From contig JAFASF010000245.1 of NCBI GenBank assembly GCA_019244745.1, positions 1-36,348 of the forward strand: a DNA stretch of 36,348 bases, given 5' to 3'. The position numbers and the translations under genes are program-made. The notes under the pieces were generated by a model. That model worked only from the letters and a program-made list of their open reading frames with translations. It was not told the DNA's origin and searched no databases. Every line of letters starts with the position of its first letter. Position 1 is the first letter of the stretch. The stretch comes from Solirubrobacterales bacterium. GTDB taxonomy: Bacteria; Actinomycetota; Thermoleophilia; Solirubrobacterales; Solirubrobacteraceae. Below, piece by piece: positions 31,010 to 32,781 of this stretch.

Positions 31010-31416
31010 CCTCGGGCCTGGAGCCTCAGGGACCCCGGGGACCCGGCCTCGGAGTGCTGATCGTCGACGACGATCGATTCATACGCAGGCTGATCTCGAC
31101 CACGCTCGAGGACGTGGCCGATTTCGAGCTTCACGAGGCCTCGGATGGGTTGCAGGCCCTGGAGGTGGCGCGCCGAGAGCGTCCCTCGCTCGTATTCCTC
31201 GACGTCGACATGCCCGGCCTCGACGGGATCGAGACCTGCCGGCGCCTGCGCTCCGAGGAGGCGACCGCCGCCAGCACGATCGTGATGCTGACCGCTGCCC
31301 ACGGCGACCGAGTCGTTGACCACGCCGAGCAGGCGGGCGCCGATCTATTCCTGACCAAGCCGTTCAGTCCCCTCGAGCTGCTGCGGCTGGTTGATCGGCT
31401 GGGTGAGCAGCGATGA
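31006..31416 (+). CDS. CheY-like single-domain response regulator
   Basis: This 136-residue receiver domain has an N-terminal Gly/Pro-rich tail of about 16 residues, the acidic pair in VLIVDDDRFI (Asp21-Asp23), phosphoacceptor Asp66 in FLDVDMPGLDG and the conserved Lys in FLTKPFSP (about 118). There is no output domain, so it likely signals by contact, perhaps with the HD-GYP enzyme encoded just upstream. Start ATG 31006 and stop lie in ATGA overlaps with both neighbours. Confidence 0.9.
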   Translation: MTSGLEPQGPRGPGLGVLIVDDDRFIRRLISTTLEDVADFELHEASDGLQALEVARRERPSLVFLDVDMPGLDGIETCRRLRSEEATAASTIVMLTAAHGDRVVDHAEQAGADLFLTKPFSPLELLRLVDRLGEQR

Positions 31417-32369
31417 CCCGGCGCGCCTGGGTGGCCTTCGCGGCGATGTCGCTGATCTGGGGCGTGCCCTACCTGTTCATCAAGATCGCGGTGGACGGCG
31501 GAGTCACGCCGCTCATGCTCGCCTGGGGGCGGGTCACGCTCGGGGCCTTGGTGCTGCTGGCGTTGGCGCGGCGGGCGGGCACGCTGCGGACGGTCCGCGG
31601 GCACTGGCGCTGGCTGGCCGCTTACGCGATCGCCGAGATCTCGATTCCGTTTCCGCTGATCGCGTTCGGCGAGCAGCGTGTGGCCTCGTCCCTGGCGGCG
31701 ATCATGATCGCGTCGGTGCCGCTGGTCGGAGCGGTGCTGGCGATGCGGTTCGACCACTCGGAGCGGCCCACACCGGTGCGCGCCCTCGGGTTGGTGCTCG
31801 GGTTCGGTGGCGTCATCGTGCTCGTGGGAATCGACGTCGCCGGACGGGCGGATGAGCTCCTCGGCGCGGGGGCGATCCTGGTTGCGGCCGTCGGCTACGC
31901 GATCGGGCCGATGGTGGTCAAGCATCGCCTAGGCGGCCTCGACGCGCGGGCGACGATGGGCTCGAGCCTGGCGATCGCGTCGGTGGTCCTGCTCGCCGGC
32001 GCCGCGGTCGACCGGCCGCAGCGGGTTCCTTCGGCCGGCGCGATCGCCGCGGTCGCCGTCCTCGGGCTGCTGTGCACGGCGGCCGCGTTTGTGATCTTCA
32101 CGGTGCTGATTCGCGAGGCCGGTACGAGCCGGGCCACGGTTATCACCTACATCAACCCGGTCGTTGCCGTCACCTTGGGCGTGGCGCTGCTCGGCGAGCG
32201 GCCGGGCGCCGGCGCGGTGGCCGGGTTGTTGCTGATTCTGGCCGGGTCGTGGCTGTCCACGGACGGGCGGCTGCCGCCGTCGCTGCGGCGGGCGGTGGCG
32301 GTGGTCCTGCGGTGGCGGGGCCGGCGTGAGCCGGCGGCCGAGCGATCGGTCGGGTGCGTGGAGGCGTAG
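31413..32369 (+). CDS. EamA/DMT-family transporter
   Basis: This 318-residue membrane protein has the ten-helix two-repeat EamA layout. Repeat 1 starts at WVAFAAMSLIWGVPYLFIKIAV, repeat 2 at GAILVAAVGYAIGPMVV, and it ends with a helix then a basic tail (LRRAVAVVLRWRGRREP). Family members export metabolites or amino acids. The start is ATG at 31413 in an ATGA overlap with the receiver gene. It is the last gene of the signalling operon; its stop is 26 bases before a palindromic repeat array. Confidence 0.9.
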   Translation: MTRRAWVAFAAMSLIWGVPYLFIKIAVDGGVTPLMLAWGRVTLGALVLLALARRAGTLRTVRGHWRWLAAYAIAEISIPFPLIAFGEQRVASSLAAIMIASVPLVGAVLAMRFDHSERPTPVRALGLVLGFGGVIVLVGIDVAGRADELLGAGAILVAAVGYAIGPMVVKHRLGGLDARATMGSSLAIASVVLLAGAAVDRPQRVPSAGAIAAVAVLGLLCTAAAFVIFTVLIREAGTSRATVITYINPVVAVTLGVALLGERPGAGAVAGLLLILAGSWLSTDGRLPPSLRRAVAVVLRWRGRREPAAERSVGCVEA

Positions 32370-32395: not shown

Positions 32396-32676
32396 AGCGT
32401 GGGCAATACCTACGCGTATTCCATAGTTATTGCCCACGCTCCGGCGTGTCGCCCTCCCGACGCAGCGTGGGCCGAGCGGGGGTCGCTCCTGCCCCTCGTC
32501 CTCCGACGCAGCGTGGGAGATAACTGTCGCTATGCGGTAGATATTGCCCACGCTCCGGCCCCTGCGCCCTCCCAACGCAGCGTAGGAGATAACTGTCTCC
32601 ATGCGGTAGTTATCTCCCACGCTCGCGGGTGAGGGTGGGAGATAACTCGGACATAGTTCGAGATATTTCCCACGCT
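32396..32676. repeat. array of five 45-base palindromic units
   Basis: Each unit is exactly 45 bases: 32396-32440, 32464-32508 (decayed, left arm only), 32510-32554, 32579-32623 and 32632-32676. The arms begin AGCGTGGG and end CCCACGCT. Unit 1 has perfect 13-base arms and unit 4 has 16-base arms with one mismatch. The spacers after units 1 and 3 are also related (CCGG... GCCCTCCC... ACGC, 23-24 bases). Since 45 is a multiple of three and each unit is palindromic, both strands give similar peptides (SVG...IAHA or ISHA), but I do not think it is translated. It fills the gap between two convergent genes. Confidence 0.85.
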
Positions 32677-32781
32677 GGGCGGAGGCGTGATCCGGTGGAG
32701 ACCGGGGGGCGCACGCCGGCGGAGACCGGCGCGCCGGCTTGATCCGGCGGAGACTGGCGCGCCGGCGGTGACCCGGCGGAG
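32673..32781. repeat. GC-rich direct repeats of 24-29 bases
   Basis: Four related copies end in GGTGGAG or GGCGGAG at 32700, 32724, 32752 and 32781, with units of 24, 28 and 29 bases. Most contain the palindrome GGCGCGCC or a relative. The array begins where the palindromic array ends and lies just past the secG stop, so it could stop or stabilise secG transcripts. Confidence 0.7.

What the first reader, a model, noticed from the sequence alone, without database searches (positions are those of the whole stretch)
32396..32676. Array of five 45-base palindromic units between convergent genes
Five units of identical length share AGCGTGGG/CCCACGCT arms. One has perfect 13-base arms and one has 16-base arms with a single mismatch, while the inner sequences vary. 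One unit has lost its right arm. The spacers after two units are related, so whole 68-69-base unit-plus-spacer blocks seem to have been duplicated. Base changes are partly matched across the stem, as in units 3 to 5, suggesting RNA or cruciform structure matters. It may be a mobile palindromic repeat family, or a transcriptional punctuation element.
Basis: seen in the sequence. Interest (0 to 1): 0.8.

Follow-up and report, generated by a model that had tools for sequence, protein, structure and literature searches.

The report
Mobile 45-base palindromes in soil actinobacteria
A 45-base mirror-image DNA repeat is scattered through the genome of an uncultured actinobacterium and some of its relatives, mostly between genes but sometimes in frame inside them; it looks like a small parasitic element, similar in habit to the known REP repeats, whose mobilising enzyme was not found.

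Summary
The array is real: four full 45-bp quasi-palindromes plus an 8-bp arm remnant, between convergent EamA and secG genes. It belongs to a dispersed family: 22 distinct full copies at 18 loci of this genome, control 0. With a free gap length, nine of nine exact-arm matches are 45 bp.

Relatives in the order carry palindromes of the same plan (tip CT-N4-CTAT-N5-AG) with different but self-complementary arms: 14 of 232 genomes, 4 of 54 genera, two families. Stem changes covary.

Seven congeners keep EamA-secG without the array. Most copies lie between genes. A few are in frame inside genes: a UvrD intein here, and a methyltransferase in three congeners where 23 orthologues lack it. One 15-codon frame is open in 22 of 22 own copies.

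REP-defining features fail: no GTAG/CGTC tag in the own flanks, and a Y1 transposase domain in only 1 of 10 genus carriers. Best reading: a new REP/RPE-like family of non-autonomous mobile palindromes. Mobility is inferred and the mobiliser unknown. A terminator role lacks a T-tract.

The parts
32396..32440 (+). Unit 1, full 45-bp palindrome, perfect 13-bp outer arms
32464..32471 (+). Remnant of unit 2: outer left arm AGCGTGGG only
32510..32554 (+). Unit 3, full 45-bp palindrome (centre CTATG)
32579..32623 (+). Unit 4, full 45-bp palindrome, one outer-arm mismatch
32632..32676 (-). Unit 5, full 45-bp palindrome, opposite orientation by its central base, one outer-arm mismatch
32450..32471 (+). 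Spacer plus arm repeated at 32565-32586 (91%), a sign of block duplication
   Evidence: family D5
31413..32369 (+). EamA-family transporter gene, convergent left neighbour
   Evidence: Pfam PF00892
32805..33032 (-). secG, convergent right neighbour
   Evidence: Pfam PF03840

Best explanation
The units are copies of a non-autonomous mobile palindromic repeat of 45 bp, REP/RPE-like in habit. It spreads by copying the whole unit to new sites, mostly between genes, and has duplicated locally with its spacer to give this array. Shown: dispersion at fixed length, patchy occurrence with species-specific arms, absence from orthologous gaps, in-frame copies inside genes. Inferred: an enzyme encoded elsewhere recognises the extruded hairpin, probably near its conserved tip (CT-N4-CTAT-N5-AG), while the outer arms need only be complementary; an open 15-codon frame lets some insertions into coding sequence survive. 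Any effect on transcription is probably secondary.
For: 23 places in the own genome, 22 distinct, control 0; nine of nine free-gap matches are 45 bp. Asymmetric inner sequences (GTCGC...GCGGT, CGAAC...GTGCG) recur in many copies, so whole units were copied. 14 of 232 genomes of the order match, in two families, with other arms. Cells changed on both sides of a pair: 41 vs 17.3 shuffled in 22 own copies, 112 vs 41.8 in 29 genus sequences. Seven congeners keep EamA-secG without the array. Methyltransferase: in-frame copy in 3 genomes, absent from 23 orthologues. Own UvrD intein copy in frame. Frame 0 open in 22/22, and 21/22 on the other strand, vs 9.7 and 11.2 shuffled.
Against: No transposase, target-site duplication or excision product was found; mobility is inferred from distribution. 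No base-exact empty site: congener matches at this locus are mostly 70-86% identical, and in the methyltransferase the element stands in place of a short turn, net gain 9, 10 and 15 residues. In the own copies two covariation measures do not stand out: pairs changed on both sides 8 vs 6.4 (54 of 500 shuffles reach it), further pair types 19 vs 16.8 (67 of 500). Arm covariation could also come from template-switch repair. Copies share ancestry, so counts over copies are not independent; most G025 copies have a stop in frame 0 (1 of 10 open). The exact own arms in relatives gave chance-like matches too: G003 and G008 with other gap lengths, and the reversed control hit G022 and G056 once each.
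Confidence: 0.7

Rival explanations
1. Host RNA punctuation element: the hairpins act as bidirectional terminators or mRNA 3' stabilisers between genes.
For: 7 of 18 own loci lie between convergent genes and 8 between co-directional ones by a crude gene caller. Very stable fold.
Against: No T-tract at any unit. 18 of 28 genus genomes match neither model. Some copies lie inside reading frames. Wobble pairs: raw cells 79 G-T vs 53 A-C, inner stem 55 vs 18, which would favour one strand, but distinct types are 27 vs 24.
Confidence: 0.12
2. Protein-binding operator or nucleoid site: a 45-bp palindrome bound as duplex DNA by a regulator.
For: Constant length and two-fold symmetry.
Against: Outer arms differ between species and within one genome (G201) while staying complementary. 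In-frame genic copies.
Confidence: 0.06
3. A true GTAG or CGTC REP family moved by a RAYT that is missing from the incomplete assemblies.
For: Gene-end placement, stop-codon overlap and intragenic copies are described for REPs (PMC3733652, section 15 read). Most carriers are incomplete MAGs.
Against: Y1_Tnp found in 1 of 10 genus carriers, partial (G016), against 5 of 18 non-carriers. No GTAG/CGTC consensus at the own ends.
Confidence: 0.07
4. Palindromes kept matched only by mutational template switching in hairpins, with no mobility; copies are old duplications.
For: Template switching is described as a way to homogenise palindrome arms (PMC6649704, passages).
Against: Does not explain dispersal to 18 loci, nor mismatches that many copies share (position 14/32 Watson-Crick paired in 3 of 23, 6.7 expected).
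Confidence: 0.05

Closest known systems
Rickettsia palindromic elements (RPE)
   Same: Palindromic, several families, found between genes and in frame inside unrelated protein genes; target-site duplication marked unknown (PMC2229807 and PMC10969869, passages).
   Different: Given as 105-146 bp (PMC2229807) or about 150 bp (PMC10969869); here 45 bp, another phylum, and few interior genic cases. Sequence relation was not tested.
GTAG and CGTC REP elements
   Same: Short hairpins mostly between convergent or co-directional genes, tandem clusters with flanking DNA, overlap with stop codons, intragenic copies including UvrD/REP helicase; the CGTC type is said to lack a dedicated transposase (PMC3733652, section 15 and passages).
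   Different: REP stems are 5-13 bp (GTAG) or 8-9 bp (CGTC) with an end tag; here about 21 bp, no tag consensus in the own flanks, conserved at the tip.
Bacterial MITEs (Correia, ERIC, RUP)
   Same: Small non-autonomous inverted-repeat elements, sometimes fused in frame to genes (PMC2229807, passages).
   Different: Here no target-site duplication was seen by eye and the whole element is one hairpin.

Membership tests
GTAG/CGTC REP | Unpaired GTAG or CGTC tag at one end | tested here: not met
   Flank counts of the 22 own copies: left -2 is never A (no GTAG); CGTC is not seen among the 22 printed left ends; right +2 is never T. Other species were counted only in two pooled groups, without a tag consensus.
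GTAG REP | RAYT (Y1 transposase) in the genome | tested here: not met
   0 in own genome (5 of 14 control genomes ring); 1 of 10 genus carriers, partial, and 5 of 18 non-carriers. Genomes are incomplete.
REP | Mostly intergenic, convergent or co-directional gene pairs | tested here: met
   Own 18 loci: 7 convergent, 8 co-directional, 1 divergent, 1 at a called gene start, 1 inside an ORF (crude caller, not compared with random placement).
RPE | In-frame copies in unrelated protein genes | tested here: met
   UvrD intein (own), methyltransferase (G007, G022, decayed in G023), membrane protein (G007, G018). An orthologue without the copy was seen only for the methyltransferase.
RPE | Element length of about 100-150 bp | tested here: not met
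   45 bp in most copies, a few of 44 or 46.
RPE | Sequence homology to a Rickettsia RPE family | not tested
   No RPE sequences were fetched.
MITE | Target-site duplication | tested here: inconclusive
   None seen by eye in the flanks; no base-exact empty site.
Intrinsic terminator | G+C-rich hairpin followed by a T-tract | tested here: not met
   one terminator-like site (32209-32224, inside EamA), none at a unit.
Rfam RNA family | Match above gathering score | tested here: not met
   0 matches in the window.

The most novel reading that the evidence does not exclude
A distinct class of selfish palindrome, in Actinomycetota, recognised at its hairpin tip and indifferent to arm sequence: arms change freely between species but stay complementary, length is locked at 45 bp (15 codons), and one frame is usually kept open, so the element can enter protein genes without breaking them. 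It would be moved by an unidentified structure-specific enzyme that is not a Y1 transposase.
Probability: 0.3. Interest if true: 0.75.

Novelty: new variant of a known kind. Interest (0 to 1): 0.55.

Why it matters
Protein-coding palindromes are known from Rickettsia and Wolbachia (titles seen in the reference list of PMC2229807). In the main text of the tagged-REP survey PMC3733652 the word start 'actino' has 0 occurrences. An actinobacterial family with species-specific arms, a 15-codon length and in-frame insertions that can be placed on a phylogeny would give a natural series for asking how such elements move without a known transposase and how they add peptides to proteins.

Tried and rejected
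RAYT partner: rejected. RNA strand polarity: the raw excess of G-T over A-C mispairs (79 vs 53 cells; inner stem 55 vs 18) shrank to 27 vs 24 distinct types, so it is not claimed. Start-codon role of the element: three called genes start inside a copy (L049, L119, L127) and a fourth probably does (L128, by likeness to L119), but many copies lack a central ATG, so this is taken as exaptation or start misassignment. Virus origin: 0 hits for both patterns in viral contigs. Exact own pattern in GTDB r220: 0, where the own genome may be left out; a looser pattern gave 16 stretches, 13 from Solirubrobacterales MAGs. Paper searches; Solirubrobacter plus palindromic gave 7 listed papers, none relevant by title.

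Full report
Observation. The window holds four full 45-bp quasi-palindromes and one 8-bp arm remnant at 32396-32676, between a convergent EamA gene and secG. The stretch folds far better than shuffles (z = -9.96). A 22-bp spacer-plus-arm repeat supports block duplication. No Rfam family matches the window. The single arm with one mismatch is no commoner in the window than chance (61 vs 58.7); it is the paired arms that are unusual.

Genome family. The exact-arm pattern with any gap of 14-44 bases finds nine places, all 45 bp long, and 0 for the reversed pattern. A fixed 45-base consensus with up to three mismatches gives 23 places against 0 (here the length is set by the pattern). Two of these, on C182 and C456, share an identical 78-base block and flanks that look near-identical by eye, and are taken as one locus on two strain contigs. 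That leaves 22 copies at 18 loci. There is also one decayed copy (C93:2923-2966) and one partial at a contig edge (C169:1-31), and the remnant in the window.

Structure. In the 22 own copies 41 cells are changed on both sides of a pair against 17.3 in shuffles, and the covariation score is 0.223 against 0.101 (0 of 500 shuffles reach either). Two other measures do not stand out: pairs changed on both sides (8 vs 6.4; 54 of 500) and further pair types (19 vs 16.8; 67 of 500). In 29 sequences from six genomes of the genus all five measures do: 112 vs 41.8 cells, score 0.478 vs 0.150, 17 vs 14.0 pairs (6 of 500). These counts follow lineages, not independent events. In those 29, CT at 15-16 and AG at 30-31 are invariant and CTAT at 21-24 nearly so. 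Position 14/32 is Watson-Crick paired in 3 of 23 own copies against 6.7 expected, p about 0.04 uncorrected. Wobble pairs give no independent sign of strand polarity.

Distribution. The exact own arms in 61 relatives match four genomes: own, G003, G008, G027. The G003 and G008 matches have other gap lengths, and the reversed control hits G022 and G056 once each. The own-genome model matches 9 of 28 genus genomes at E 0.01. The genus-wide model matches 11 of 146 family genomes at E 0.005, 8 of them in the genus, and 14 of 232 order genomes at E 0.001, in 4 of 54 genera and two families. Either model marks 10 of 28 genus genomes. The models were built from some of these copies; nine copies in the second family were not in them. 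Eight of these nine are 45 bp; six have the CTAT centre and three CCAT. The two G107 copies are 46 bp with another centre, and a weak G087 match is 38 bp. The name of the order for the own genome is inferred from these congeners. The exact own pattern gave none there, and two viral scans gave none.

Placement. By a crude codon-usage gene caller the 18 own loci are 7 convergent, 8 co-directional, 1 divergent, 1 at a called gene start and 1 inside an ORF. Of 71 copies in own and related genomes (two of them duplicates in sequence), 13 were called inside or overlapping an ORF. Five of these are interior by my reading, in three gene kinds: a UvrD-type helicase intein (own), a SAM methyltransferase (G007, G022) and a membrane protein (G007, G018; no orthologue without the copy was looked for). 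Placement was not compared with random expectation. Seven congeners showed EamA and secG in one fetched locus; their gaps between matches are 44-366 bases and hold no array. G019 has another CTAT-centred palindrome in that gap.

Coding copies. The methyltransferase was found in 27 of 28 genomes. G007, G022 and, decayed, G023 carry the element in frame; 23 orthologues lack it; G018 gave only a fragment and G005 no hit. Against G009 the net gain is 9, 10 and 15 residues, so it is not a clean 15-codon addition in all. The own intein carries RVGDNCRYATDISHP directly after HTHFAG. G021 has a decayed, related palindrome at the same point of its intein (VVGRNWRQATVPSHG); shared ancestry and repeated insertion cannot be told apart. 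The intein query matched 11 of 28 genomes. Pfam finds UvrD domains, and the intein domain just below its cut-off (35.4 vs 35.8 bits). Upstream of a PolyA_pol-type gene, G007 and G025 carry a copy with the same arm type; the other 14 genomes printed show none by eye. Frame 0 is open in 22/22 own copies (21/22 on the other strand) and 24/29 (25/29) of the copies of G007, G018, G022 and G023, but in 1/10 (7/10) in G025, where other frames are open.

Mechanism. Whole units are copied, since asymmetric centres recur in subfamilies. Arms diverge between species while staying complementary. This fits recognition of an extruded hairpin near its tip; that step is inferred. No enzyme was identified. A Y1 domain is absent from the own genome, partial in 1 of 10 genus carriers and present in 5 of 18 non-carriers. 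Template switching (PMC6649704, passages) could add to arm matching.

Comparison. REP placement, clustering, stop-codon overlap and insertions in UvrD/REP helicase genes are described for GTAG/CGTC REPs (PMC3733652, section 15 and passages). In-frame palindromes are described for Rickettsia (PMC2229807 and PMC10969869, passages). This family shares these habits but shows no tag consensus and no matching transposase, and has its own length and tip. The Ogata papers were not read; the one looked up was not held.

Noticed in passing
L076 about 1989-2033 (G019, EamA-secG gap): A different palindrome with the same CTAT centre (GGTGGTCGCTATCCGACCACC) sits in the orthologous gap of a congener.
   Followed up: partly
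L031 2412-5126 (G000:C218): UvrD/PcrA-type helicase gene with a small intein; the intein query matched 11 of 28 genus genomes.
   Followed up: partly
L039, L045, L048, L050 (G021): An asymmetric relative of the element with similar flanks in all four copies, so the repeated unit in G021 may be larger than 45 bp.
   Followed up: no
window 32679-32762: G+C-rich imperfect repeats (GCGGAGGCGTGATCCGGTGGAGACCGG type) between the array and secG (family D3).
   Followed up: no
L068 (G007) EamA-secG gap: Several short repeats of the type CACACTCGGC / GTCGAGTGTGGC, perhaps another hairpin family.
   Followed up: no
L023 and L024 (G000:C182, C456): Two contig ends that look near-identical, probably strain variants kept in one MAG.
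   Followed up: partly
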